From IMG/VR virus record IMGVR_UViG_3300030102_003813, positions 1 to 22,942 of that record: a stretch of 22,942 nt of DNA. The stretch is one strand, 5' to 3'. Every line of letters starts with the position of its first letter. Positions within the stretch are counted from its first letter, which is position 1. The notes under the pieces are model-generated. The model was given only the letters and a program-made list of their open reading frames with translations, searched no databases and was not told the origin of the DNA. Source of the stretch: a virus. Made by a program: the position numbers and the translations under genes. Positions 2,291-22,455 of this stretch are shown in pieces.

Positions 2291-3448
2291 ATGGCAAATA
2301 CTAACTTTGCTTCGTTGACCAGTGAACAACTTACCATCTGGTCACGAGATTTTTGGCGTGTCGCTAGAAACATGTCCTTCATTAACCAATTCGCGGGTGC
2401 GGGTTCAAACGCAATGGTTCAGACTATATCTGAACTTACTCAATCAGAAAAAGGAGCTAGAGCAGTTTTAACTCTTTTAGCTGACATGACTGGTGACGGT
2501 ATTGTGGGTGACAACACTCTCGAGGGTAATGAAGAAGCATTAAGAGCTTTCGACATAGTCGTAACAATTGACCAACTAAGATTTGCAAACAGATTATCTG
2601 GTAGACTTGCAGATCAAAAGTCAGTTGTAAACTTTAGGGAACATTCAAGAGATGCACTTGCTTATGCAATGGCTGACAGAATGGACCAATTAGCATTTCT
2701 TACACTAAGTGGTGTTGGATATAACCTTAAGAACAATGGTGCGTTAAGACCATCAATGAACTCAGGGCAAAATCTAAACGACTTAGAATTTGCAAGCAAT
2801 GTTACTGCCCCTACGTCTAACAGACACAAAAGGGTAGATAATGACGGTAGTGGTAACATTACCTTACAAGCTGGTGACGTCACTGCTCTAACAGCAGCTG
2901 ATAAACTCAGCTATAAAACCATTGTTGATTTAAAAGCTTATGCTAAAGATCAATACATCAGAGGCCTAAGAGGCGCAGGTAACGATGAGACATTCCATCT
3001 CTTTGTAACTCCGCAGGTTATGGCTGACCTTAAACTTGATTCAGATTTTCTTGCTAACGTAAGACAAGCTGGAATCAGAGGACCACAATCAAGCTTGTTC
3101 TCTGGATCATCAAGTCTAATGGTTGATGGTGTTATGATTCACGAGTTTAGACACGTGTTTAACACTTCTGGTGCTACAAGTGGTACATCATCAAACGCTG
3201 GCGCAGCTGGTTTTAAAGGTGGTGCAAATGCTGATATTGATTACGCTTCATGTTTATTCTGTGGCGCACAATCTTTAGCAATGGCTGATATTGGCATTCC
3301 TGAAATAGTTGAAGACACATTTGACTATGGGAACCAAAACGGTATTTCAATTGGAAAAATATTTGGTCTACAAAAACCAAAATATCATTCTGACATAACA
3401 GGTCAGTCTGAAGACTTTGGTGTTGTTAGATTAGATGTCGCATTCTAA
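2291..3448 (+). CDS. Major capsid protein, N4 gp56-like family
   Basis: The 385-residue protein forms the icosahedral shell. The family is suggested by the N-terminal WSRDFWRVARNMSFINQF segment, the GDGIVGDNTLEGNEEALRAF block at residues about 68-87, and ADQKSVVNFREHSRDALAYA followed by MADRMDQLAF at about 107-136; these are typical of the N4-gp56 type of HK97-fold capsid proteins. Length is normal for the family. The GGAGA at 2279-2283 eight bases before ATG supports the start. Residues 183-196 (DNDGSGNITL...) form an Asp/Gly-rich loop reminiscent of calcium-binding loops but lack a proper acidic residue at position 12. A CLFC pair lies in the C-terminal GAQSLAMADIG region, where relatives usually have hydrophobic residues. 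The gene is bracketed by copies of TGTGGTATA and followed by a strong hairpin, which fits separate high-level expression. Confidence 0.88.
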   Translation: MANTNFASLTSEQLTIWSRDFWRVARNMSFINQFAGAGSNAMVQTISELTQSEKGARAVLTLLADMTGDGIVGDNTLEGNEEALRAFDIVVTIDQLRFANRLSGRLADQKSVVNFREHSRDALAYAMADRMDQLAFLTLSGVGYNLKNNGALRPSMNSGQNLNDLEFASNVTAPTSNRHKRVDNDGSGNITLQAGDVTALTAADKLSYKTIVDLKAYAKDQYIRGLRGAGNDETFHLFVTPQVMADLKLDSDFLANVRQAGIRGPQSSLFSGSSSLMVDGVMIHEFRHVFNTSGATSGTSSNAGAAGFKGGANADIDYASCLFCGAQSLAMADIGIPEIVEDTFDYGNQNGISIGKIFGLQKPKYHSDITGQSEDFGVVRLDVAF

Positions 3449-8871: not shown

Positions 8872-8952
8872 ATGTGGCAGTTAACGAACAAGATATCATC
8901 CAAAGAATTAAATCGGGCAGTATTGCTGGGCAACCCACAAGTAGAAATTTAG
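8872..8952 (+). other. 26-codon overlapping reading frame at the start of the giant gene
   Basis: In TAAATGTG at 8869-8876 the stop of the upstream gene, an ATG (8872) and the GTG start of the giant gene (8874) are interleaved. The ATG opens a separate frame of 26 codons that ends at TAG 8950-8952. It may be chance, or a competing start that lowers translation of the giant protein. No protein family is suggested. Confidence 0.2.
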
Positions 8953-11900
8953 AGTCTGATCGTTTAGAACAAGGAGCTACTATATCTGGTGCTCCTGCTG
9001 CGACTCGAGTAGAAAGTATAGATAATCCGATACAAGCTCTGCGTGCGGGTGTGGTTTCTGGGGCTCGTAATATAGCTGCCCAAAATAAAAACTTTAGAGC
9101 TACCATTGCTACTTTACGTGGTAACGATGAAGACGCAGCAAACTTTTTAAAAGAGGGAGACAGGTTAGAAGAACAGTCAGCTATACCTTTAGCTGGTATG
9201 GAAAGTTTTGAAGAGTTTTTAGAAGAGCCAACTGTTTCTGGTTTTTTTAAGCAATTTGCTTCTGCTACAGGCCAGTTTGTACCTTCTTTAGCAGCTAGCT
9301 TAACTGAAGCGGTTATTGTAGGTGGTATTGTAGCTGGGGGAACAGTCTTGTCTGGAGGCACTGCAACCCCTGGTTTGATAGCAGGTGCAGGAGCATTACA
9401 AGCTACTGGTAAACAGGCCTTGAAACAAATACCTAGAAGACTACAAAGAAGAAGACCTAATATCACAAAAGAACAAGCAGAAGAACTTTTAAATAAACAA
9501 TATAAAAATAGTTTAAAAGAAGCCAAAGGACAAGAATTACCTTTTACTTTTACCCCAAAAGAACTAGAGGATTTAAATGATATTTATGCGCAATTACGTA
9601 GTCAGAAACGTAATTTAAGGTTTACACAAGGTGCAGTTGCAGGGGCATATAGCCAAGAACAAAGAATGGGTACTGGTATTGCTTTTAGTGACTACGTAGA
9701 CCAAGGCATGCGTTCCCCAGAAGATGCAATAAAAGCTCTAGGACAAGGACAAGTTTTTGGTGCTATAGGTTTAGGAGCAGAAGCAGCTACTGCAGTTGCT
9801 ATAGGAAAACGTTTGAAACAAGGTGGTAAGCTAAGAAAAAGCACAGGTACAGATCCTTTTACTCCAGACCTTCGTCCTACCTCTACTTTTTTTGGTGACT
9901 TAGCAACGGGTGTTGCAGTAACTTCAGTTGCAGAAGGTATAGCGGAAGGATTACAAGAAGAACTTTCCATACAACAAAAATTTAGTATTGATGACCAATA
10001 CACGAAAGCAAACGCAAGAGTAGACAGATTAAACGCTTTATTTGCAGGTTTCTTTGGGGGTGTAGGTGTTGGTGCAGGATTGGGTGCTGGTACAGGTGCA
10101 ATGAATAAACTAAGAGAGCTTGCCAATAGAGGAGTAGCAGAGTCTGATGGCCTATCTATGTTTACGCAACGTTACAATGAAAATGAATTAGGCAGAATTA
10201 TGAAAGAAAGGGCTTCTGCGCTTGAATCTCAGTTTGAATTTGCCTCTCTTGTAGGCTCTAATAAAGATAGCATTTTTATTGATATAGATAGCAAAAGCGA
10301 AGCAAACCTACAAAAACTAGAAAATATATTACCAAATGCTATTTCTGTAGCTACAGCAAGAGGAGCTTACTTTACGACCGATTCAGTAAAAGCGCAAGAG
10401 TTTCAAAATTTAGTTAATGTATACCCTTTTAATACTGAGATACAAGACCAGTGGCTGGCAGAAAGGGGCCTAGGATTTAGTAGAAGTAGAAAACCTGGGG
10501 ATGATATGGTTGTAGGTATTCTTGATACCAAAACAAATGAATTAGTTCATTACCAAACTACTTCTAGTGTTTTTGAAAATGATTTTGAAAAAGCTAAAGC
10601 GAAGATGCAAGAAATATTAGGAACTGCGGATCCTAACCGTTACAAAATAGTACAACAGACTTTAGCAGAGCATAGAGACTACAGAAAAAAAGGATTGGAA
10701 GATACTAGAACTACTTCTTTTGACGTTATCAGGCAAGCTTTTCAAGAAACAGAAAACATGGGCACTGACCAAGATGAAACAGTTAACGAGTCTGATAGAG
10801 GCGTAGCAGATATAAATGTAACAGCAAACGCTTTAGATTTAGAAACTGGAAAAGCTAGTCCATCTGTAAAAAACGAAATAAACAGATACATACAAACTGA
10901 ATACAAGCTACCCATAAATTATGACGATTTAGTATTTTTTGTTAGAGAAGGTAAAAAACTTGCTACAAACAAAGTGAGAAATAAAGCACAAGCGCGTGCA
11001 CAAGTAAGAAAAGCAGACCCAAAAGTTAGACAAAGGTTATCTTCTATTTATAACGATTTAGTAAAAGCAGAACAACTAGCAGGCCCATTGCAGGGCGCAG
11101 ATAGAGATTACTTAGCCAGAGTTGCACAAAAACCTTTTGAAGAAATGTCTAGTTTATTAGATGAGATTGTAACTGCGGGGTCAAACATACAAACACAAGA
11201 TGCCATCTCCAGTAGTATGGACAGGTTGTCAGAAGAAGGTGGAGATATAAACAGTATACCTTTAGTAGGTGTCACTGAAATATTAAAAAGAACAAATGTA
11301 AAAACAGCCGAGGCAGCAGACCAAGCAGGCGTTAGGGCTCCAGTTGCAGAAGCAGATCCTTTAGTTATGAAAAGATTTGGTTCTGGTACTGTAGAAAACC
11401 CTTATGTAGATCCTAAAACGGGTAAAGCTTTTAGGATAAGCAAAACAGACCCAAAGGCTACTCCAGAACAAGTAGAAGGTTTAAATCAGTATATACAGAA
11501 CACACTAAAAGAAGAATTCAATACACAAAAACCTTTCTTATCTAAAAGCGCGGTAGAAAATTTTGAAAGAAGGGCAAAAGAAGAAGAGTCTAATACAGAA
11601 GGTGTAGGGTTTGTAAGGTTTGTAGACAGAAGAGATATAAAAGCTTTGCGAAATGCTTCTAAAAAAGGAGATGTGTTTGAGGCCCCACAAAGACCAGATA
11701 CGGATAAAAACAGGGGATATGTCATTATTAGGATGCAACCTGAAGAGAAAGAGTTTCAACAAGCAACACGTAGAAACATTAGTGAGTTTAGAAACATAAG
11801 AGAAGATTTAGTTACTAGGGTAGCTCAAGCAAAAGAAAGAACAAAAGGCGGTAATTACCAAACCCCTATATATTTTAAAGTAAAAGATTTAAGGGCAGGC

Positions 11901-14900
11901 CTATCCGAAAGTGTACCTGCTGGTAATGTAGATATGTCTGTTTTACTAGAAGGAATCACTACAATTACTAGGCGTACTGGCAGAAGAGACGTGGTTGAAT
12001 TAGCAGACACTTATGCGCAAAGAGTAGCCGCATTATTAGATGCAATTACTCTTTTACCCGAACAAGGTTTTAGAATAGAGTATTATCCAAATACTGTAAA
12101 AGTAAATACACCTTTTACTGAAATAACTGGGGACAGTATACAAGATATTATAACAAGCCCAGCTGGCGCAAGTATTTTAAAAGTAAAATTATCAGAAGAC
12201 CCAAAAGAAGTAGAACAGCAACTTGTTGAGTTAGAACAGAAATTTGGGTTAACTAATTTAGCCTACGCTCCAGGCAGGATAACTAGAGATGCTTTTGCAC
12301 AAATAGAAACTCCTTTTTTAGAACTCACCAACCAGCCAGATCTTATTGCTCCTTTTGTACAAGATTTAGAAGCAAATAGTATGTCTGAAATGAGTTTAGA
12401 CGAACTTACAGACTTAAAAGAAAAAGTAGAAAATGTTATTGCTATTAGATACCCCGCACCTTTTGTAGGAGAAGGACTTATGAGGGAAGCTAGAACAAGA
12501 ACAGAGGTAGAAAAAAGAGCAAAAGAATTGTTTATTGAACTTTCTCAACAAGACAAAACTTACTTAAACTTTCTTAAGCCCATATCAGGAGTTATAGCGT
12601 CTATAGAAGCGCAAGATATAAGAAATAACCCTGGTAAATTCAGAGATAAAGCTACTAGAAAAGTGCCACAACGAGATCAGCAAGGCAATAGAATCATTAG
12701 AGAAACTACTGGCAGGTCAAGTATTACTGGAGAAATAGAAACAAGACCTGAAGTTGTATATAAAGAAGAATCACAACCTAGGTTTGAAGGCGCGGGAGGC
12801 ACTATAGATAGAGAAGCAAAAATAGGAACTTATGCAGACGACATACAAACTATAACTCAAGAGAGACAGACAGAATTTTTAGAAGATAGTGGACTATTTC
12901 AAACTGATGACCCTACTATAGGCACTCCAGTAGACACTAGCGCTGTAAAAATGGATATAAATGATCGTGCTTTATTTGAAAGTTATCAGGCTCAAGATGG
13001 CGTAGAGTATAGAGGTAGGGACAAGTATGCAGAACTAAGTAGGTTAATTAGAAATGACTCTACGAAACCTACCTTTGGTAATAATCTTAAATATCAAAAA
13101 GGATTTGATATTTTGTTGGAGAGCGCTTTACAACAAAGACGAGACGCTATCTCTCCACCTGTTACAAGAGCTAGATTACCCTTTAGAAAACAAATACTAA
13201 AAGGCCTGACTACTGCAGCACAACAGTTAGGACTAGAAACAAATATAAAATTAATAGCTGCAGAAACAGCCTTTAATGATTCACAACTCCCTGCCTCTAT
13301 TAGAAACACTATAGATGAAACTAATTTTGAAACTAAAAGACAAGAGCTTTTAGATAACCCTAACGCTGGGGCTATGACTTTACAATACAAACACTTCGAT
13401 ATAATCATGATAAAAACGTCAGGTCAGGTAAACGAAGGGGCTTACTACACTGCTTATTTAAAAGAGTTAGGTAATTCTTTTACTTTCCAAGAAATAGAAA
13501 GAAGTTTAAAAGTGCCAGCAATACGAAAAAAACTTCTAGAAGCCTATAACAAAATAAGAGAAAGCAAAGATGTTCCTCCCACCTATACAGATGATGAAAC
13601 AGGGTTTAATAATTTTTTAGCAGATCAAAATGCTTTAGCTATACGTGAAAAAATAGGTTTAGATGTAGATGGCACTACGTACAGTAATTTAAATACGCCT
13701 GCAAAATCTTGGTTTAAAAGATTAGCTAAATCTCAAGAAGCCCTGTATAAAAAATTAAACCCTGCGCAAAGAAAAAGATTAGAGATAAATGAAACTTTTG
13801 ACGAGTATGCAAAAGATTTACAAGATACTTTAAGAAACCCTGCTAACCAAGAAGTTCCTTACCAAGTTAAAGCAAAAATAGAAAGTCAGATAGAAAGTAT
13901 TTTGGGCCCTCAAAGTTTTACAGACAAACAACTTAGAAAAAGTATAGAACAAACACGAAAAATATTAACTGCAAAAAATATGCCCAAGTTTATTAAACAA
14001 ATTTTCTTAACCTCTGATACAAGACTTAGACATTTTGGACCCCCAGGAGAAGCAATTGCTGACTTTTTATACCAAGAACCTAGAAGTGTTTCACAAACAG
14101 GAAGAGCTGGCATATTTACATTGAAAACTAGAAGAGCTAACAAAATGTTAAACGACATTGCAAAAATATTAGGAGTAAAAGATGGGTGGTTTTATTCTAC
14201 CTTTAACGCAGAACAAAAAGCTATATTAGAACAAGCAGCTGATGACACTATAGCTACAAAAGATCTGACTAACCCACAAGCTGCTCAAGTTAGAGATTAC
14301 CTTACTGCTATATATAAAGAGCTTAACTTAGATAAGTATGATGTAGACTTTAGAGAAAACTTCTTCCCTCGTGTTTTGGCAATTTCTGAAATAGCTAGTG
14401 ATGAAGGGAAACAACAAGCTCTTAAACAATTACTAAAAGATGCAAACCCTAAAGCAAAAGATACAGAAATTAGTAAAGCGGTTACAAATCTAATTACTAA
14501 AAACAATGGTGATATAGAATTTACTGCGCAAGAAGAAATAGATATAGGTATGATGCAAGAGAGAAAACCTTTGTTTAAAAATATAACTAATAAACAGCTT
14601 ATAGATGCAAAATTAGTAGACCCCCCAGAAGTATCTTTAAAAAAATATTTAGACAAACTTTCTTTAAAATATGAATTTGAACAGTCGGGTGGTAAGCGTG
14701 AGTTCAATAGGCTTCTAGGAAAATTAAAACCCGCTGAACAAAAAGAAGCAAGAGATATCATAGATTCTATGTTTGGTAAGATAGCCCCAATCCAAAACGG
14801 TTGGTTAAAAACAGCTAATAATATTGGTTTAGTGCTTAACGTCGTAACTTTACTAGGGCTTACAGTCATAGCTTCTTTGCAAGATACAGCGGGTCCTATA

Positions 14901-15881
14901 TTGAGAGCTAGAGGCACTGCTAAAATAAGTGATGTTACTACTGTTATAAAAGACATGATTAAAAACCCACAAGAAGCAGCCGACATTGCTAGAGAGATAG
15001 GAGTTATAGGAGTAGATGCTATGTCTACTTTCTTTGTTTTAGCTGGAGAACAAGACTTTATGAACCAAACCGCAAAAGACGTATCGGATGCTTGGTTTAG
15101 AGTAACTGGGTTAGAAGCATACACTAGGTTTACTAGGGTTTTTGCTTCGGGCATGGGAGCTCAGTTTTTGCGTAATCATGCACGAAAAGCTAAAAAAGGC
15201 GATAGTACCTCTCAACTATATTTAAATGAACTTAATGTTACTGCTGATGAAGTATTAGCTTGGGAAAAAGGTAAAACAGACGCTGCAACTAGAGAGAAAG
15301 TAAACGAAGCTTTAGCACAGTTTGTTGATGAATCTATTGTTAGACCTAATCCTGCACAAAGACCTACTTATGCAAATGACCCTAGATACGCCATGATCTG
15401 GCAACTTAAATCTTTTTTCTATGCTTATGGTAAAACAATAGTGTTTCCAACCATAAAAGAGTCTCACAAAGGTTTTGTAAACGATGGGGCTGGCGCAGGA
15501 GCTATGCCGTTGCTTATGATGGCAGGCATGTTGCTACCAATAACAATGTTAGGTTTAGAAATAAGAGAGTTATTTAAAGCATTTTTAGCTTGGGTGCTAC
15601 CCGGGGTAAGCCCAAGTGATCCAGGAGTAGATTATTTTAAAACAAATAACATGAGTACAGGACAGTATATGACCGAAATAATAGATAGAAGCGGCATGTT
15701 AGGGCCAGCTTCTTTAGCATTACCAGTATTTTTAGAAAGTCATAGATATGGTAAACCTTTTTGGATACCACCTTTAGGCCCCACAGCAGAAAGAATTTAT
15801 GATGGTATAACTTGGGATTGGCGTGCTGCAGACTTTATACCTGTGTACAGTCAACTCGACACTAGAGCATTAGGAAGGTAA
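8874..15881 (+). CDS. Giant internal virion/ejection protein (2335 residues), T7 gp16 position
   Basis: The GTG at 8874 lies three bases after the upstream stop; the next in-frame ATG visible is about 108 codons later, so GTG is preferred. The N-terminal ~420 residues contain several Gly/Ala-rich hydrophobic stretches (VPSLAASLTEAVIVGGIVAG; LFAGFFGGVGVGAGLGAGTG) that could cross membranes. The middle is polar and helical. Residues about 1500-1590 look like a degenerate zinc-peptidase domain: AYLKELGNSF at 1527-1536 where an HExxH would be expected, then GFNNFLADQNALAI. The C-terminal part has GLVLNVVTLLGLTVIASL (from 1985), DESIVRPNPAQRPTYANDPR, IWQLKSFFYAYGKTIVF and a hydrophobic hairpin at about 2210-2240, a tail I recall from other large phage virion proteins. 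No lytic transglycosylase ES...GLMQ pattern is seen. T7 gp16 (1318 residues) stands in the same slot, so this may be an enlarged inner-membrane channel protein. No cysteine is present. Confidence 0.65.
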   Translation: MAVNEQDIIQRIKSGSIAGQPTSRNLESDRLEQGATISGAPAATRVESIDNPIQALRAGVVSGARNIAAQNKNFRATIATLRGNDEDAANFLKEGDRLEEQSAIPLAGMESFEEFLEEPTVSGFFKQFASATGQFVPSLAASLTEAVIVGGIVAGGTVLSGGTATPGLIAGAGALQATGKQALKQIPRRLQRRRPNITKEQAEELLNKQYKNSLKEAKGQELPFTFTPKELEDLNDIYAQLRSQKRNLRFTQGAVAGAYSQEQRMGTGIAFSDYVDQGMRSPEDAIKALGQGQVFGAIGLGAEAATAVAIGKRLKQGGKLRKSTGTDPFTPDLRPTSTFFGDLATGVAVTSVAEGIAEGLQEELSIQQKFSIDDQYTKANARVDRLNALFAGFFGGVGVGAGLGAGTGAMNKLRELANRGVAESDGLSMFTQRYNENELGRIMKERASALESQFEFASLVGSNKDSIFIDIDSKSEANLQKLENILPNAISVATARGAYFTTDSVKAQEFQNLVNVYPFNTEIQDQWLAERGLGFSRSRKPGDDMVVGILDTKTNELVHYQTTSSVFENDFEKAKAKMQEILGTADPNRYKIVQQTLAEHRDYRKKGLEDTRTTSFDVIRQAFQETENMGTDQDETVNESDRGVADINVTANALDLETGKASPSVKNEINRYIQTEYKLPINYDDLVFFVREGKKLATNKVRNKAQARAQVRKADPKVRQRLSSIYNDLVKAEQLAGPLQGADRDYLARVAQKPFEEMSSLLDEIVTAGSNIQTQDAISSSMDRLSEEGGDINSIPLVGVTEILKRTNVKTAEAADQAGVRAPVAEADPLVMKRFGSGTVENPYVDPKTGKAFRISKTDPKATPEQVEGLNQYIQNTLKEEFNTQKPFLSKSAVENFERRAKEEESNTEGVGFVRFVDRRDIKALRNASKKGDVFEAPQRPDTDKNRGYVIIRMQPEEKEFQQATRRNISEFRNIREDLVTRVAQAKERTKGGNYQTPIYFKVKDLRAGLSESVPAGNVDMSVLLEGITTITRRTGRRDVVELADTYAQRVAALLDAITLLPEQGFRIEYYPNTVKVNTPFTEITGDSIQDIITSPAGASILKVKLSEDPKEVEQQLVELEQKFGLTNLAYAPGRITRDAFAQIETPFLELTNQPDLIAPFVQDLEANSMSEMSLDELTDLKEKVENVIAIRYPAPFVGEGLMREARTRTEVEKRAKELFIELSQQDKTYLNFLKPISGVIASIEAQDIRNNPGKFRDKATRKVPQRDQQGNRIIRETTGRSSITGEIETRPEVVYKEESQPRFEGAGGTIDREAKIGTYADDIQTITQERQTEFLEDSGLFQTDDPTIGTPVDTSAVKMDINDRALFESYQAQDGVEYRGRDKYAELSRLIRNDSTKPTFGNNLKYQKGFDILLESALQQRRDAISPPVTRARLPFRKQILKGLTTAAQQLGLETNIKLIAAETAFNDSQLPASIRNTIDETNFETKRQELLDNPNAGAMTLQYKHFDIIMIKTSGQVNEGAYYTAYLKELGNSFTFQEIERSLKVPAIRKKLLEAYNKIRESKDVPPTYTDDETGFNNFLADQNALAIREKIGLDVDGTTYSNLNTPAKSWFKRLAKSQEALYKKLNPAQRKRLEINETFDEYAKDLQDTLRNPANQEVPYQVKAKIESQIESILGPQSFTDKQLRKSIEQTRKILTAKNMPKFIKQIFLTSDTRLRHFGPPGEAIADFLYQEPRSVSQTGRAGIFTLKTRRANKMLNDIAKILGVKDGWFYSTFNAEQKAILEQAADDTIATKDLTNPQAAQVRDYLTAIYKELNLDKYDVDFRENFFPRVLAISEIASDEGKQQALKQLLKDANPKAKDTEISKAVTNLITKNNGDIEFTAQEEIDIGMMQERKPLFKNITNKQLIDAKLVDPPEVSLKKYLDKLSLKYEFEQSGGKREFNRLLGKLKPAEQKEARDIIDSMFGKIAPIQNGWLKTANNIGLVLNVVTLLGLTVIASLQDTAGPILRARGTAKISDVTTVIKDMIKNPQEAADIAREIGVIGVDAMSTFFVLAGEQDFMNQTAKDVSDAWFRVTGLEAYTRFTRVFASGMGAQFLRNHARKAKKGDSTSQLYLNELNVTADEVLAWEKGKTDAATREKVNEALAQFVDESIVRPNPAQRPTYANDPRYAMIWQLKSFFYAYGKTIVFPTIKESHKGFVNDGAGAGAMPLLMMAGMLLPITMLGLEIRELFKAFLAWVLPGVSPSDPGVDYFKTNNMSTGQYMTEIIDRSGMLGPASLALPVFLESHRYGKPFWIPPLGPTAERIYDGITWDWRAADFIPVYSQLDTRALGR

Positions 15882-15889
15882 AATTAATT

Positions 15890-16264
15890 ATGGCATATTC
15901 AGACACAATAAAATTAGTAGTAGGGGACACACTTCCTGAACTTACTTTTAACTTAAAAGACAGCAACACTGCAGGTTCTGGGCTTACGTTAGATCCTGAG
16001 GATAGCAATACTTGGGCTCCTGTAAATTTAACTGGGGGTTCTGTAAAGCTAAGAATAAGAGAAGTAGGTAAAACAACTGTGTTATCTACTATTACAGCTA
16101 CACTTTCTGCCCCTAGTGCAGGCACTTGTATTTTAATATTCCCATCAGGAACATGGACAACTGCAGGTACTTTTGAGGGAGAAATTGAATTTACAAAGTC
16201 AGACGGAAACATACAAACAGTACAAGATCTAATAAAATTTAAAGTACGTGACGACTTTGATTAA
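15890..16264 (+). CDS. BppU-N-like beta-sandwich tail protein
   Basis: This 124-residue, all-beta protein starts with IKLVVGDTLPELTFNLKDS, continues with PVNLTGGSVKLRIREVGKTT and TFEGEIEFTKSDGNIQTVQD, and ends in IKFKVRDDFD. This order of strands is that of the BppU N-terminal (upper baseplate protein) immunoglobulin-like domain as I remember it, found as a stand-alone small protein in many marine phages. It probably anchors or decorates the tail or fibre base. AGGAAGG at 15872-15878, inside the end of the giant gene, precedes ATG. Its stop overlaps the next start (TAATG). Confidence 0.65.
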   Translation: MAYSDTIKLVVGDTLPELTFNLKDSNTAGSGLTLDPEDSNTWAPVNLTGGSVKLRIREVGKTTVLSTITATLSAPSAGTCILIFPSGTWTTAGTFEGEIEFTKSDGNIQTVQDLIKFKVRDDFD

Positions 16265-18006
16265 TGGCATTCAAGTTTACAGTAGACTACCAGCAAATAA
16301 AGCTGGTAATACAGACAGATTCTACAGAAGCTGTAAACTTATTTGAGCACCTAAAAACTACAGTACAATTTATCGACATGCAACAAATCGTTGCATTTCA
16401 ACAACTTACTGCTGCAGACGTCTTTATAGATGCAGACACCAAAAACCTTTACTTTAGCACCCAATACAACTCACCTAACGCAGAATCTTTTGGTTTTACT
16501 GATTCGGACGTATTCGACTTTGGCAAAGCTGCAAGCGACACGCCAATAGTTAGTGAAGAATTAGCCAAAGCGTTAGACAAAGCACTTGCAGACACTACCT
16601 CGGTAACTGAAGAACTTAGTAAAACAGTACAATATTTTAGAGATCTTGCAGATAGTTACGGTTTTAATGATTCTGAAGTCCTGTCTGTAGAGCTAGGTAA
16701 AGCTGATACTACGACTATATCTGAGTCTGATGCAAAGGATGTGGGTAAAGCTGTTGACGATTCTTCTAGCGTGCCTACAACTAAAACTTACACAGTTACT
16801 GTAGCTACGGGCACTAATGTTTATGGATCAGGTAATAAGTTTTACATAGATGGATTACCTAGTCCCGGATTAATTTTAAATGAAAGTATTACATACACTT
16901 TTGACCAGTCAGACTCAAGTAATTCTAATCATCCTTTTAGGTTTTCTACTACAGGAAACGGCACTCATAACTCAGGTAGTGCGTACACTACAGACGTAAC
17001 TGTAAACGGTACACCTGGATCTGCAGGAGCTTATACTAGGATTGTAGTAAGTTCTTCTACCCCTGATTTACATTACTACTGTAGTAATCATAGTGGAATG
17101 GGAGCTGAAACATCTGTTCAAGATGATGGAGATACTACGTTTGCAGTGACTGTAGCAACCGGGGTAAACAACCATGGCTCTGGTAATAAATATTATATAG
17201 ATGGGGTTATAACTCCTATAGTGCACCTGTTAACGGGTAATACATATACTTTTGAACAGTCAGATTCTAGTAATTCTAATCATCCTTTTAGATTTAGTGA
17301 AACCTCAAATGGTAGCCACGCAAGCGGAACAGAATATACAACAGGAGTTACAACCAACGGAACGCCAGGATCTTCTGGTGCTTACACAAGAATACAAGTA
17401 ACTGAGTCTACGTCTAGCACATTATATTATTATTGTACTAATCATTCTGGCATGGGAGGAGAGGTAAACTCGTCTCTTGCGAGTGCTGGGGATATGTTGA
17501 TGTTAGATGTACCAGCAAAAAGTTTTGAAAGACCGCTTTCTGACGCTCCTAATATAGCAGAAAGCCTAGCTAGGGCTGTTACTTACCAAAGAACTTTTAC
17601 AGATGCCTATGCTTTAGATGACTTAGCTAGTGCAGAAGATAATCTAGCTACTGAATCAGGTTTAAATAAAAGCAACGTGTTTAGTGTAACAGATGTTCCC
17701 GTGTTTTCTATAACTAAGCCTGCTATAACAGACACGATTACTATGTCAGAAAGCCTTTCTTTTAATTTTGTAGGCGAAAATTCGGCTTTTGTAGATGCTT
17801 TTAGTCTTTCAGACTCACCAAGTTTAGCAATAGGGCCTGTAGATCCCTTTGCTGATACACCCAGCCTTTCAGAAAGTTTGGGTTTATCTTTTGACACATC
17901 TTTTACAGATAGTGCTACAATAACTGAGTCAGTTGAGATTCTGTTTGTTCCCGGTGGTGGAAGCATACTGAATACATCTGTCTTAAATACTAGTGTTTTA
18001 AATTAA
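16264..18006 (+). CDS. Tail/fibre protein with two tandem cupredoxin-like domains
   Basis: The 580-residue protein begins in TAATG overlap with the previous gene. Residues about 70-172 hold imperfect repeats (SFGFTDSDVFDFGKAASD against SYGFNDSEVLSVELGKAD; VSEELAKAL against VTEELSKTV). Residues about 175-285 and 292-402 are two copies of one domain. Each has YTFxQSDSSNSNHPFRFS, a Gly/Thr-rich loop with YTT..VT.NGTPGS.GAYTRI, and YYC[ST]NHSGMG. The residues His223, Cys273, His276, Met279 and His340, Cys391, His394, Met397 reproduce a type 1 copper ligand set with the C-x2-H-x2-M spacing of amicyanin. The C-terminal 170 residues repeat FxDxxSLSES-like units and end in ILNTSVLNTSVLN. A surface tail protein is likely from position; copper binding is inferred. 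Confidence 0.65.
   Translation: MAFKFTVDYQQIKLVIQTDSTEAVNLFEHLKTTVQFIDMQQIVAFQQLTAADVFIDADTKNLYFSTQYNSPNAESFGFTDSDVFDFGKAASDTPIVSEELAKALDKALADTTSVTEELSKTVQYFRDLADSYGFNDSEVLSVELGKADTTTISESDAKDVGKAVDDSSSVPTTKTYTVTVATGTNVYGSGNKFYIDGLPSPGLILNESITYTFDQSDSSNSNHPFRFSTTGNGTHNSGSAYTTDVTVNGTPGSAGAYTRIVVSSSTPDLHYYCSNHSGMGAETSVQDDGDTTFAVTVATGVNNHGSGNKYYIDGVITPIVHLLTGNTYTFEQSDSSNSNHPFRFSETSNGSHASGTEYTTGVTTNGTPGSSGAYTRIQVTESTSSTLYYYCTNHSGMGGEVNSSLASAGDMLMLDVPAKSFERPLSDAPNIAESLARAVTYQRTFTDAYALDDLASAEDNLATESGLNKSNVFSVTDVPVFSITKPAITDTITMSESLSFNFVGENSAFVDAFSLSDSPSLAIGPVDPFADTPSLSESLGLSFDTSFTDSATITESVEILFVPGGGSILNTSVLNTSVLN
16786..17133 (+). repeat. Cupredoxin-like domain repeat, copy 1
   Basis: This encodes residues 175-290. 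Candidate ligands are His223, Cys273 (TGT at 17080-17082), His276 and Met279. The DNA stretch AATTCTAATCATCCTTTTAG around His223 is repeated exactly in copy 2, while most of the rest differs at synonymous sites. Confidence 0.65.
17137..17469 (+). repeat. Cupredoxin-like domain repeat, copy 2
   Basis: This encodes residues 292-402. Candidate ligands are His340, Cys391, His394 and Met397, offset by about 118 residues from copy 1. Ligand spacing and flanking residues are conserved while loops differ, which suggests that both domains are under selection rather than one being a decaying copy. Confidence 0.65.
17524..17943 (+). repeat. Degenerate FxDxxSLSES-type repeats
   Basis: The C-terminal part of the 580-residue protein contains at least six related units: LSDAPNIAES, FTDAYALDDL, ITDTITMSES, FVDAFSLSDS, FADTPSLSES and FTDSATITES. 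Spacing is irregular, roughly 20-40 residues. Such repeats are common in extended fibre shafts. Confidence 0.5.
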
Positions 18007-18465: not shown

Positions 18466-20802
18466 ATGGGAATTGTTTTTAAGAACAATGCCAAAACAAC
18501 GCTTGGATCTAGTCTAACCAATAGTGCGACAAGCGCTACAGTAACAGACGGTAGTGTATTTCCAAGCTTAGCTGCAGGAGAGTTCTTCTTCTGTACGTTT
18601 GACGACGGTACAAATAATGAGATAGTAAAAGTTACTGCAAGATCAAGTAACACTTTAACTATTGTTCGTGCCCAAGAAAGCACTACGGCTAGGGCCTTTA
18701 GTTCGGGTGACGCAGCTGAACTTAGGCTTACTGCGGGAGTTCTTGAAACAATTCAAGAAAACATTGCAGCTAAATCTGCAAATCAAACAGTTTTTAATGC
18801 AACCACTTCTGGTGGCGCAACAAGTTATGACATAGGTATAGACCCTGGCGTAGAGGGCAATGCCATGGTTTTCTTAAATGGTGTACTACAACACCATAAC
18901 ACTATATCTTTTTCTAGCTCTACTCTTACTTTTGATGCTGCACCCCCAAATGGTATGGCCTTAGAAGTCATAGTAGATAATCTTATTAATTTACAGTCGT
19001 CTAACTTAACTGTAGATTCTTTTACCGCAGCAGATGTAGGGGGCAGTGCACAAACAGACTTTACTTTATCTGATACTCCAGCAGCTGAAACAAACCTAAT
19101 AGTTTTTGTAGACGGCGTCTTTCAAGACCAAGACGCTTACACTATCTCTAACAACACTTTGACTATAACTACAGGCGTCATAGCCGGTAGGGGTGTAACA
19201 GTTTATGTAATAAACCCAGTAAATATTGGAACACCAAGCGACGGCACTATAACTAGTGCAAAACTTTCGGGCAACATTACTATGCCTGGCACTTTGACCG
19301 TAGGATCTAACGATGTTGCTTTTGACTCACCCACTTTTGTTGTAGATAACTCTAACTCTCGTGTAGGCCTAGGAACTGCTTCACCATCCGTGCCCGTGGA
19401 TATTGTTGGCGATGTAAAGATGTCAGCCAACTTAACAGTTGATACAAGCACTTTAGTTGTAGACTCTACTAATAATCGTGTTGGAATTGGAACGAGTAGT
19501 CCAGCACAAACACTTCATGTATCAAGTTCAGCAGCTACAAGTAATGGCATAAGAATTTCTAACTCAGAGGGTTCTTTTGAAGCTAGAGTAGATGCTGGAG
19601 AGTTTTATTTATATGATGTAGATGATAATAGAATACCATTTTTAATTGATAGCTCAGGCAATGTTGGAATTGGAACGACTAGTCCTAATGGAGGTTTACA
19701 TGTTGGAGTTGATGATTATGTTTATCTTGCAGGGAATGTAGGTTCTGCAACGCTTGATGCAGTGCAAGGACTAGCAGTTGGCTGGAATAAATCAAATGGT
19801 GCTGGAGAAACTCTTTTAATTGCTAATCAAGGTGCAGGTTCAACTGGTGGTTTAGTATTTGCAACAAATACAAGTGGTGGCTCATACGCAGAAAGATGGC
19901 GTATTGATAGTTCAGGACATTTTACAGGTGCTTCAGGTAGTAAAATAGTTCAAACAATTGCATCAGGTGGTGGTAACTTTTTAGAGGTTACACACTCAGG
20001 TAATGAAGCATGGTCTATGGCGGTGCAATCAGGTACTGGTGCTGATGATTATTTAGATATTGGTATTAATGGTGGTACAAGAGCAATATCAATACATGAA
20101 GATGGAAAAATTGGAATTGGAACGACTGGAGCTGAAAAAAGGCTTCACATAACCGACAGCACACAAGCTAATCAAACCATAAGATTTGGTAATCCTTCTG
20201 CTACTCCTTATGGTGAAATTAACTATGATTCTAGCGGTTTTGAACATTTATATATAACTTCAAAAGGAACAACAACAGGCTATGGAAACATAGTATTTAA
20301 TACTGGTGACACACCTAGTGAAGCCATGCGTATTAGTTCAACTGGACTTGTAACAAAACCAAGAATAAGTGCTGCAAACGGAGCATTTTGGGCTAGAGGA
20401 ACTAGTAATCCGACTGCAAGTGGTAATACTCATGTAGGTGTTGTTTTTACTACTTTAGAACAAGGAGGAGGATACAGTACTAGTACTGGAAGATATACTG
20501 CTCCTGTTGCTGGTTGGTATAGTTTTTCAACAAATGTAAGAATTGATGGTTATACTGGCGGTGGTTTTATGAGAATTGCATTTTATACAGGAACCTCTCC
20601 AAGTACCTCTCAATCTGGTTATGGTCAAGGTCATGCTATTTATGGACCTGATTCCCTCGATGACCAATATTATAGTATGACAACATCTTGGACTGTATAT
20701 TTAGGTTCTGGAAATCAAGTAGGGGTAGCTGTTCTTTCAGGAAATTCAGGTGGTTATACTATACACCAAGAAAGTAACTTTTCAGGGCATTTAATAGGAT
20801 AA
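18466..20802 (+). CDS. Tail fibre protein with VGIGT repeats and C1q-like tip (778 residues)
   Basis: AGGAGA at 18452-18457 precedes the ATG. Residues 1-100 form a conserved-looking anchor (ATVTDGSVFPSLAAGEFFFC; AELRLTAGVLETIQENIAAK). Two related beta units follow at about 134-172 (VFLNGVLQHHNTISFSSSTL) and 213-250 (VFVDGVFQDQDAYTISNNTL). The shaft contains RVGLGTASP, RVGIGTSSP, NVGIGTTSP and KIGIGTTG, typical of trimeric phage fibre shafts. The last ~145 residues resemble a C1q/TNF-like trimeric head: GYSTSTGRYTAPVAGWYSF, QVGVAVLSGN and final NFSGHLIG. The likely role is host binding. There is no chaperone or endosialidase-type autocleavage motif that I can see. Base composition shifts to more A/T-ending codons from about 19550 onward. 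Confidence 0.75.
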   Translation: MGIVFKNNAKTTLGSSLTNSATSATVTDGSVFPSLAAGEFFFCTFDDGTNNEIVKVTARSSNTLTIVRAQESTTARAFSSGDAAELRLTAGVLETIQENIAAKSANQTVFNATTSGGATSYDIGIDPGVEGNAMVFLNGVLQHHNTISFSSSTLTFDAAPPNGMALEVIVDNLINLQSSNLTVDSFTAADVGGSAQTDFTLSDTPAAETNLIVFVDGVFQDQDAYTISNNTLTITTGVIAGRGVTVYVINPVNIGTPSDGTITSAKLSGNITMPGTLTVGSNDVAFDSPTFVVDNSNSRVGLGTASPSVPVDIVGDVKMSANLTVDTSTLVVDSTNNRVGIGTSSPAQTLHVSSSAATSNGIRISNSEGSFEARVDAGEFYLYDVDDNRIPFLIDSSGNVGIGTTSPNGGLHVGVDDYVYLAGNVGSATLDAVQGLAVGWNKSNGAGETLLIANQGAGSTGGLVFATNTSGGSYAERWRIDSSGHFTGASGSKIVQTIASGGGNFLEVTHSGNEAWSMAVQSGTGADDYLDIGINGGTRAISIHEDGKIGIGTTGAEKRLHITDSTQANQTIRFGNPSATPYGEINYDSSGFEHLYITSKGTTTGYGNIVFNTGDTPSEAMRISSTGLVTKPRISAANGAFWARGTSNPTASGNTHVGVVFTTLEQGGGYSTSTGRYTAPVAGWYSFSTNVRIDGYTGGGFMRIAFYTGTSPSTSQSGYGQGHAIYGPDSLDDQYYSMTTSWTVYLGSGNQVGVAVLSGNSGGYTIHQESNFSGHLIG

Positions 20803-20810
20803 ATTATGGC
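20789..20810 (+). repeat. Fibre gene junction repeat, copy 1
   Basis: The stretch covers the last codons (LIG), the stop, the spacer and the first codons of the next gene. It matches 22442-22464 except for one extra A in the spacer. It contains AGGA, which can act as the ribosome binding site for the following ATG. Confidence 0.6.
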
Positions 20811-22455
20811 TAACACTAAGATCACAGCAGATAACCTAGATACTCTAACAACCTTAACGGTTGATGATATCACTCTTGATGGATCTACTATTTCTGATGC
20901 TGGCGATTTAACACTAGACATTGGTGGAGATTTAACAATAGATGTAGATGGCGCAGATATAAAATTTGCTGACGGAGGTACAGAATTTGCTGACCATTTT
21001 TTAGATGGAAGTGATTATAAAATTCAAACAACTATTTCAAATGGTGATTTTATTATAGTTGGTAATGATGGTGGTTCTGCTATTAATGCTCTTACCCTTG
21101 ATATGTCAGACGCAGGAAAGGCAACATTTAATGCAGGTGGTTCTTTTGGTGGTGCTTTAACAGGAACAAGTGCTACTTTTACTCCATCATCAGGAGAAAA
21201 TTTTGTGATAACAAGAGATGGTGCTGGTCCATTTATTGGAAATAGCTCAAATCATGAGCTAAGAATAATCACAAATAATACTGAGAGGATGCGTTTTAGT
21301 ACTACAGGAAGAGTTGGAATTGGTGCTAACTCACCATCAGCACTTTTAGAACTTGAACATTCTAGCGATGCAGAAATAGATTTAGACTGTACTGGTGGTA
21401 GAAGATTTAGAATTGCATCAACAGCTGCAAATGCTTTAATTTTTAGTGATAAAACTGGAAGTGCAGAAAGAATTCGTGTCGATAGTTCAGGAAAAGTTGG
21501 AATTGGAACTCAAAGTCCTGATGGATTACTTCATATATCATCAGGTAATTCAGGAGATGCGATTGTTATCATACAAGCTGATGAAGATAATAATGAAGAA
21601 GGAGATAACCCACAACTATGGTTCAAAGCTGATGGAGATATTACAGAAGCAGCTATAAGACAAGCAGATAATAAACTTGAAATTATAAGTAATGTTTCTG
21701 TGTCTGGTGGCATTAGCTTTTTGACCGGCACGTCAGATAATACAGGCACAACAGACCCAGGTACCGGTGCAACTGAAAAGATGAAGATTAGTGCAGATGG
21801 AAAAGTTGGAATTGGAACTCAAAGTCCTGCAAGAGAATTAGATGTACAAGCTGCAAGTGGTTGGGGAGAAATAGCACTTAGAGGCGCTAGTGGTTCTGGT
21901 GCTAGTTTAGAGTTTTACACTACTTCTACTAAAAGAGCAGAAATATTTACAGATACAGAAGATATAGTTTTTAGAAATACAGCATCAAATACAGAAAGAA
22001 TGCGTATTAATAGTGCTGGGATTGTAACAAGACCAAATCAACCCGCTTTCCATGCTTATGGGCCCACTTCAGGCACAAGTGGAGCATATATAGTCTATCA
22101 AAATGCCACCGTAAATACTGGGGGTCACTATAGCACCTCAACTGGGAAATTTACTGCACCCGTTGCAGGTGTATATTTTCTTTATTGGAGTGCAATTGGA
22201 AATGATAATGCTGATGTTTATAGATATTATTTGCGTGTAAATCAAAGTAGCACTATATCAAATACAGCAAATGATATTCATTTAAGAATAGATACATTGG
22301 CTACAGGTAACGAGTATGGAACCAACGGTTCAAGAAATCAAATATTAACATTAGCTGCTAATGATGAAGTGCAAATATATTTTCAGGCAGATAGTGGTGC
22401 TAATACGTACGTAAATAATGATTATGTAAACTTTGGAGGTTATTTAATAGGATAA
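20806..22455 (+). CDS. Second tail fibre protein with VGIGTQSP repeats and C1q-like tip (549 residues)
   Basis: The ATG stands three bases after the previous stop. Residues 20-60 consist of GDLTLDIGGDLTIDVDGADI-like beta repeats, then GNDGGSAINALTLDMSDAGK and a shaft with RVGIGANSP and two KVGIGTQSP units near residues 170, 231 and 334. ERMRFSTTG and ERMRINSAG are typical of fibre repeats. The C-terminus (about 412-549) has HYSTSTGKFTAPVAGVYFLY and ends NFGGYLIG, the same C1q-like pattern as the preceding fibre, but with different codons. It is probably a receptor-binding or fibre-elaborating protein working with its neighbours. One perfect 31-base direct repeat lies inside it. Confidence 0.72.
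   Translation: MANTKITADNLDTLTTLTVDDITLDGSTISDAGDLTLDIGGDLTIDVDGADIKFADGGTEFADHFLDGSDYKIQTTISNGDFIIVGNDGGSAINALTLDMSDAGKATFNAGGSFGGALTGTSATFTPSSGENFVITRDGAGPFIGNSSNHELRIITNNTERMRFSTTGRVGIGANSPSALLELEHSSDAEIDLDCTGGRRFRIASTAANALIFSDKTGSAERIRVDSSGKVGIGTQSPDGLLHISSGNSGDAIVIIQADEDNNEEGDNPQLWFKADGDITEAAIRQADNKLEIISNVSVSGGISFLTGTSDNTGTTDPGTGATEKMKISADGKVGIGTQSPARELDVQAASGWGEIALRGASGSGASLEFYTTSTKRAEIFTDTEDIVFRNTASNTERMRINSAGIVTRPNQPAFHAYGPTSGTSGAYIVYQNATVNTGGHYSTSTGKFTAPVAGVYFLYWSAIGNDNADVYRYYLRVNQSSTISNTANDIHLRIDTLATGNEYGTNGSRNQILTLAANDEVQIYFQADSGANTYVNNDYVNFGGYLIG
21490..21520 (+). repeat. 31-base direct repeat, copy 1
   Basis: This is identical to 21799-21829 and encodes the GKVGIGTQSP shaft motif. 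The distance between copies is 309 bases, so recombination would remove 103 codons in frame. Confidence 0.8.
21799..21829 (+). repeat. 31-base direct repeat, copy 2
   Basis: This is identical to 21490-21520. The sequences outside the repeat differ, which points to recent copying or gene conversion of this motif only. Confidence 0.8.

What the first reader, a model, noticed from the sequence alone, without database searches (positions are those of the whole stretch)
13376..13645. Degenerate metallopeptidase-like domain inside the giant ejection protein
The order at residues about 1500-1590 (strand-like FDIIMIKTS, then EGAYYTAYLKELGNSF, then a helix, then GFNNFLADQNALAI) follows what I remember of zincin domains in large phage proteins, in which HELGH and an E-E-x-x-ADQ-type segment supply the zinc ligands. 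Here both histidines are replaced (Lys1530 and Asn1534) and the acidic position is Asn. The fold may be kept for structure or binding without catalysis.
Basis: inference. Interest (0 to 1): 0.58.

Follow-up and report, generated by a model that had tools for sequence, protein, structure and literature searches.

The report
Phage ejection protein's inactivated metalloprotease domain
A giant protein that this marine phage probably injects into bacteria carries a metal-dependent protease domain whose metal-binding residues have all been swapped for others and then kept fixed, so the protease appears to have been turned into a conserved non-enzyme part.

Summary
The stretch lies in a 2335-aa virion-type protein (8874-15881) of a phage with a P22-like portal. 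Residues 1432-1660 (13167-13853) are a zincin (gluzincin-type) domain. A profile built only from relatives with an intact HExxH hits the window protein there with 100.5 bits, against at most 2.7 in 500 shuffles; profile-profile comparison gives E 3.7e-33. Of 80 relatives found through the C-terminal module, which does not include this domain, 77 reach the site: 53 keep H, H, E; 5 have H, E, E; 19, like the window, have K, N and N (one has H). The K/N forms are one clade, with the HExxE forms as sister. The replaced motif KELGNS is invariant in 15 of 15 non-redundant sequences, and dN/dS in the domain is 0.05-0.26, as in intact copies. So all three zinc ligands are gone while the catalytic-position Glu, a supporting Asp and the domain itself persist under selection. 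Most likely it is a pseudo-zincin kept for folding, packaging or docking; that role is inferred. Substituted zincins and phage zincins are both known; this clade-wide, graded loss is a new variant.

The parts
8874..15881 (+). Giant virion/ejection-type protein, 2335 aa, GTG start
   Evidence: ORF; PHROG 30152 'head and packaging' at 1710-2202, E 2.8e-15; the partial portal ORF upstream matches P22-like portal, E 5.6e-48
13167..13853 (+). Degenerate zincin domain, residues 1432-1660
   Evidence: Intact-only profile hit at 1438-1659, 100.5 bits; hhalign E 3.7e-33; AlphaFold2 mean pLDDT 87.1, pTM 0.84
13461..13475 (+). KELGN, residues 1530-1534, in place of HExxH on the active-site helix (both His replaced, Glu kept)
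   Evidence: Alignment columns; KELGNS invariant in 15 of 15 non-redundant K/N sequences
13602..13628 (+). GFNNFLADQ, residues 1577-1585: third-ligand segment; Asn1580 replaces Glu, Asp1584 kept
   Evidence: Alignment columns
13911..15878 (+). Conserved C-terminal module (residues 1680-2335), shared in large part with giant virion proteins of phiA008, KPP25 and tf
   Evidence: tblastn, BLASTP, PHROG 30152 and 35479
9276..9365 (+). Hydrophobic stretch, residues 135-164, possible membrane segment
   Evidence: Kyte-Doolittle scan, threshold 1.5

Best explanation
The domain is a pseudo-zincin: a metallopeptidase domain of a giant, virion-packaged and probably ejected phage protein that has lost all three zinc ligands in the window's clade while keeping its fold. 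Shown: homology to intact relatives, replacement of H/H/E by K/N/N, one clade, purifying selection. Inferred: the ancestor was an active peptidase that cut either its own giant chain or a host protein; once cutting was lost, the domain stayed as a rigid structural or docking unit between the variable N-terminal arm and the C-terminal module, needed for folding, packaging or ejection. Structurally (guess), Lys1530 takes the place of the metal and pairs with the kept Asp1584 and with Asn1534/Asn1580, so the two helices stay tied without zinc.
For: Intact-only profile finds the domain; profile-profile E 3.7e-33. Of 80 loci found through the C-terminal module, 77 reach the site: 53 HHE, 5 HEE, 19 K/N. 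K/N rows form one clade (SH-aLRT 100), HEE rows another (98), joint clade 100. KELGNS invariant in 15 of 15 non-redundant rows; Asp1584 in 15 of 15. dN/dS of the domain 0.05-0.26 in 8 K/N pairs versus 0.04-0.26 in 9 intact pairs. The helices carrying KELGN and N..AD sit in the model where the intact model has HELGH and E..AD. Precedent read in PMC5512222, section 8: the region with the zincin domain of N4 virion RNA polymerase is required for encapsidation although that protein is packaged uncut.
Against: No biochemistry. No coordinates were available, so the Lys-Asp pairing is untested. Foldseek gave no PDB match below E 0.001 and the best VIA Z is 6.0, which is weak. The AlphaFold alignment contained intact relatives, so the model is not independent of them. 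Nothing shows that the intact relatives are active or self-cleaving, or that this phage ejects the protein. KPP25, a homologue by its C-terminal part, could not be classified at the site.
Confidence: 0.62

Rival explanations
1. Pseudo-protease as regulator: the domain still binds the old substrate or a partner and shields, baits or positions it, rather than serving the protein's own assembly.
For: 37 columns are invariant in the K/N clade, several of them also kept in intact relatives. Inactive zincins elsewhere are proposed to be decoys or accessory proteins (PMC3650047, passages).
Against: No partner or substrate is known for any member; conserved columns could equally be fold residues.
Confidence: 0.17
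2. A new chemistry: the kept Glu1531 with Lys1530 forms a metal-free catalytic pair, or the site binds another ligand.
For: Glu1531 is invariant in all three classes, and Lys1530/Asn1534 are fixed in 15 of 15 non-redundant K/N rows, which is more than fold upkeep alone would seem to demand.
Against: No family known to me uses this set; adjacent helix residues normally point apart; one K/N locus (L024) has His at 1580.
Confidence: 0.08
3. Plain decay: activity became useless and the site is drifting.
For: The loss looks graded (HExxE in the sister clade).
Against: Fixed replacement letters, dN/dS as low as in intact copies, no frameshift or stop in the window's giant ORF.
Confidence: 0.06
4. 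Activity was not lost but moved: another peptidase module in the same protein or phage took over.
For: 3 of the 19 K/N loci carry an inserted module with HE[ST]AH at two different places in the giant.
Against: The other 16 of 19 have no HExxH in the giant (L019 is cut at its 5' end), and the window giant has no HE dipeptide at all. The window is a 22.9-kb record, probably a fragment, so other genes are unseen.
Confidence: 0.07

Closest known systems
Intact zincin domains in homologous giant virion proteins (Aeromonas phage phiA008 UIS74281.1; IMG/VR relatives such as L044)
   Same: Same domain, same place before the same C-terminal module; aligned motifs HELGH and GF[ED]EW.ADQ.
   Different: Ligands intact there; K, N, N in the window clade; fewer residues before the site (1005-1455 in 48 intact loci, 1513-2271 in 19 K/N rows with a complete 5' end).
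Zincin-like MPTase domains of polyvalent proteins (Iyer et al. 2017, PMC5512222; passages and the whole of section 8 read)
   Same: Three-strand sheet with N-terminal helix, HExxH helix and Glu helix in a giant multidomain phage protein, as described there.
   Different: Section 8 describes active-site variants (HExxxH) but no copy without the metal ligands; its supplementary alignments were not seen.
C1 domain of coliphage N4 virion RNA polymerase (PMC12633501, preprint; passages and section 6 read)
   Same: Analogous order: N-terminal membrane-associating part, cargo, zincin-type domain, large helical C-terminal part.
   Different: Our profiles do not score N4 gp50 above shuffles; N4 keeps HELVH.
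Zincin families with substituted HExxH (PMC3650047, passages read)
   Same: Non-random, conserved replacement of the histidines, including by Lys/Arg; roles not understood.
   Different: That survey covers Pfam-type families across life; here it is a phage virion protein with a phylogenetically ordered series.
Pfam DUF4344 (putative metallopeptidase) and Peptidase_M78
   Same: Best curated matches of intact relatives: DUF4344 E 1.1e-6 at best, in 3 of 33; M78 weakly in 11 of 33.
   Different: The member whose bits were seen (L056) is under the curated cut-off, 28.3 against 29.6; the window domain has no such match.

Membership tests
Zincin (gluzincin-type) metallopeptidase, catalytically competent | HExxH on the active-site helix | tested here: not met
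   KELGN at 1530-1534; only the Glu remains
Zincin (gluzincin-type) metallopeptidase, catalytically competent | Third ligand Glu on the following helix | tested here: not met
   Asn1580 is aligned with Glu in 33 of 33 non-redundant intact rows
Zincin (gluzincin-type) metallopeptidase, catalytically competent | Zinc binding and proteolysis | not testable with these tools
   Needs bench work
Zincin domain by descent (pseudo-zincin) | Sequence homology to intact zincin domains | tested here: met
   100.5 bits with an intact-only profile; hhalign probability 99.9, E 3.7e-33
[quoted passage not shown]
   Predicted H5-20, E26-32, E69-73, E77-83, H90-115 and H146-162, mean pLDDT 87.1; layout as described in PMC5512222
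Zincin domain by descent (pseudo-zincin) | Structural match to a solved zincin | tested here: inconclusive
   Foldseek none below E 0.001; VIA top three are an M61 aminopeptidase Z 6.0 (2.8 A over 79), a collagenase Z 5.2 (3.1 A over 86) and insulin-regulated aminopeptidase Z 5.0 (3.0 A over 79), all weak
Polyvalent protein of phages | Several unrelated enzymatic or conflict domains in one polypeptide | tested here: inconclusive
   Window: none found by Pfam. Relatives: SLOG, NADAR-like and SNase domains
Polyvalent protein of phages | Packaged in the virion and delivered into the host | not tested
   Inferred from PHROG 'virion structural protein' and gene position
N4-type virion RNA polymerase | Sequence relationship of the zincin and C-terminal parts to N4 gp50 | tested here: not met
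   Profiles of the zincin domain (A2, A3) and of the C-terminal part do not score N4 gp50 above 200 shuffles

The most novel reading that the evidence does not exclude
Loss of cutting was the innovation. In this lineage the giant protein stopped being processed, the zinc site was rewired into a metal-free Lys/Asp/Asn lock, and the uncut chain could then carry a longer N-terminal arm with exchangeable cargo (SLOG, NADAR-like and mini-zincin modules appear in relatives), so a processing protease became a fixed joint between cargo and ejection machinery.
Probability: 0.25. Interest if true: 0.68.

Novelty: new variant of a known kind. Interest (0 to 1): 0.5.

Why it matters
Zincin domains are reported as the commonest domains of polyvalent phage proteins (PMC5512222, section 8), yet what they do is open: self-processing, attack on host proteins, or a packaging part. 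A family with intact, half-changed (HExxE) and fully changed (KxxxN) members in otherwise homologous giant proteins is a natural experiment: comparing virion proteins of the classes would show which functions need catalysis and which need only the fold. It is also a clean case of graded protease loss under continued selection.

Tried and rejected
Database look-ups of the window region alone (Pfam, PHROGs, PDB sequences) and single-protein searches found no useful relative; only the C-terminal module opened the family.

KPP25 gp01, a homologue by its C-terminal part, has HESMH at 1236, but MAFFT did not align it to our site and our zincin profiles did not list it above shuffles; it was left unclassified.

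Fusion with the upstream gene as source of the longer arm: rejected for the loci looked at, because a separate upstream ORF (611-1084 aa) is still there in the K/N and HEE loci where it is complete (L007, L013, L021, L030); in the window it is 709 aa.

Plain coincidence was rejected. In the structure comparison, zincins are prominent near the head of both VIA lists (M61 aminopeptidase, collagenase, 6mdw which I recall as SPRTN, PprI/IrrE, lethal factor, MATCAP), but the first row of the intact list is an unnamed hypothetical protein (2ejq, Z 5.3), macrodomains and other folds follow closely, and all Z values are under 8, so this is supporting evidence only.

Literature: (open-access PubMed Central texts only) listed no paper that I recognised as describing an inactivated zincin in a phage virion protein; of their hits only PMC5512222, PMC3650047 and PMC12633501 were opened, each in part. 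This is not proof that none exists.

Limits of counts: one search kept the best 80 of 208 relatives; 3 of the 80 (L012, L051, L060) were too short to reach the site and were dropped before the count. Of 5 genome loci, one search found the domain in 4: L159 of K/N type, L160, L161 and L163 with HExxH; none in L162. The tree used the quick method and has long branches for the outgroup rows. dN/dS values are pairwise Nei-Gojobori on 19 chosen pairs, several with dS above 1. In one search the length figures use 48 HHE, 5 HEE and 19 K/N rows (window included); the script dropped A008, KPP25 and six loci whose giant ORF is cut or short at its 5' side.

Full report
What is there. The window is a 22,942-base virus record carrying a phage virion module: the 3' part of a P22-like portal gene, a major capsid protein up to 52% identical to that of the KPP25 group, tail and fibre genes, and a 2335-aa protein at 8874-15881. 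The giant matches PHROG 30152, 'virion structural protein', and its C-terminal part is shared with giant or large virion proteins of phages phiA008, KPP25, tf and CRP-810. Ejection with the DNA is inferred from this.

Observation. KELGN is at 1530-1534 and GFNNFLADQ at 1577-1585. The region alone matches no Pfam, PHROG or PDB sequence family convincingly.

Homology test. The giant of Aeromonas phage phiA008 has HELGH at 1079 and GFDEWFADQ about 46 residues later, and BLASTP aligned these colinearly with the window motifs, though only at E 0.44. A search through the C-terminal module (alignment A1) found 208 relatives in viral contigs, of which 80 were kept. In 77 of these 80 the site is present: 53 have H, H, E at the three ligand positions, 5 have H, E, E, and 19 have K, N and N (18) or H (1, L024). 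The search used no zincin sequence, so these classes are not selected by motif; they do reflect the kept 80 of 208. A profile of 33 non-redundant intact domains scores the window protein 100.5 bits at 1438-1659, best of 500 shuffles 2.7 bits, and hhalign of 15 K/N sequences against the 33 intact ones gives probability 99.9 and E 3.7e-33 over 211 columns. That the Glu of the E-W-x-A-D segment is the third ligand is recalled from gluzincins and agrees with the description of polyvalent-protein zincins in PMC5512222.

Evolution. On a tree from residues 1700-2335, outside the domain, the 20 K/N rows (window included) form one branch (SH-aLRT 100), the 5 HEE rows another (98), and both join at 100; all labels together need 4 changes, the least possible. 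Two further viral contigs (L094, L107) and a contig titled Neomarinimicrobiota (L159) also have KELGN; the sets were picked by motif and are not counted as proportions. The second His is absent in both sister groups, while the first His and the Glu are lost only in the K/N group; that this shows the order of loss is inference.

Constraint. KELGNS is invariant in 15 of 15 non-redundant K/N rows. Glu1531 and Asp1584 are kept in 15 of 15, Asn1580 in 14 of 15. In 8 K/N pairs dN/dS of the domain is 0.05-0.26; in 9 intact pairs 0.04-0.26; in 2 HEE pairs 0.07 and 0.10. By this measure the domain is neither decaying nor relaxed.

Structure. AlphaFold2 gives mean pLDDT 87.1 (pTM 0.84) for the window domain and 86.5 (0.80) for the intact L044 domain, with the same order of main elements. 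Foldseek finds nothing below E 0.001 for either. In the VIA second look the three best rows for the window model are zincins (Z 6.0, 5.2, 5.0), and several zincins are among the best rows for the intact model (best row an unnamed protein, Z 5.3). These Z values are weak, so membership of the fold rests mainly on the sequence homology.

How it most likely works. All three ligand positions are changed, so catalysis as a zincin is very unlikely; this is the firm part. What the domain does is inferred: a rigid joint or packaging element between the variable N-terminal arm and the conserved C-terminal module. Two facts make this attractive. The zincin-bearing region of N4 virion RNA polymerase is required for encapsidation although the protein is packaged uncut (PMC5512222, section 8), and in N4 the HExxH-bearing C1 domain sits between the polymerase and the large helical C2 part and contacts both (PMC12633501, section 6). 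N4 is an analogue only: our profiles do not match gp50. The guess that Lys1530 pairs with Asp1584 in place of the metal comes from the kept Asp and recalled gluzincin geometry and could not be measured.

Cargo. The stretch before the site is longer in K/N rows (1513-2271) and HEE rows (1756-2414) than in intact ones (1005-1455) (19, 5 and 48 rows). Pfam at E 0.001 finds SLOG-type (cpYpsA in 2, YAcAr in 1) and NADAR (in 2) matches among 20 K/N and HEE arms and none of these among 28 intact arms; cpYpsA in L022 and YAcAr in L027 pass the curated cut-off, NADAR does not. All K/N and HEE rows descend from one branch, so this is one event, not a statistical association.

Known or new. Substituted HExxH motifs, including Lys for His, are described for many zincin families, their roles not understood (PMC3650047, passages). 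Phage zincins in giant proteins are described too (PMC5512222). A clade-wide, graded loss inside a phage virion protein was not seen in the searches listed under Tried and rejected, which cover open-access texts only. I file it as a new variant of a known kind.

Noticed in passing
L007:6188-6463, L014:6242-6514 (L026 similar): A module of about 90 aa with HESAH/HETAH and a downstream ENR.N..A segment is inserted at two different places in giant proteins of 3 of the 19 K/N loci; the only phage hit is Pelagibacter phage EXVC031P Hodr (29%, E 1e-4). It may be a mobile mini-zincin.
   Followed up: partly
L022, L024, L027 giant proteins: SLOG-family (cpYpsA E 3.1e-27 in L022; YAcAr E 4.5e-12 in L027) and NADAR-like domains (L024, L027, under the cut-off) lie before the degenerate or HExxE zincin: possible NAD/nucleotide-linked cargo in ejected proteins.
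   Followed up: partly
L001:2931-9080, residues 28-112: The phiA008 giant protein starts with a staphylococcal-nuclease-like domain (29.9 bits, cut-off 21).
   Followed up: no
L004:641-6691: Roseobacter phage CRP-810 gp35 has two HExxH motifs (840, 1457) and a weak ART-PolyVal match at 1789-1935 (24.0 bits, cut-off 31.2).
   Followed up: no
16264-18006 (repeat at 16886-16944 and 17237-17295): The 580-aa fibre-region protein has two copies of a segment with HPFRF ... YYC.NHSGMG, which recalls the H-C-H-M ligands of cupredoxins (recalled); no Pfam or PDB sequence match.
   Followed up: partly
18466-20802 and 20806-22455: Two adjacent fibre-like proteins end in C1q domains.
   Followed up: no
2291-3448: The major capsid protein contains IHEFRH, one of two HExxH strings in a six-frame scan of the window; taken as chance.
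   Followed up: no
L152, L153: More distant giants with two HELGH sites a few hundred residues apart, the second only weakly matched by our profile: possible tandem zincins.
   Followed up: no
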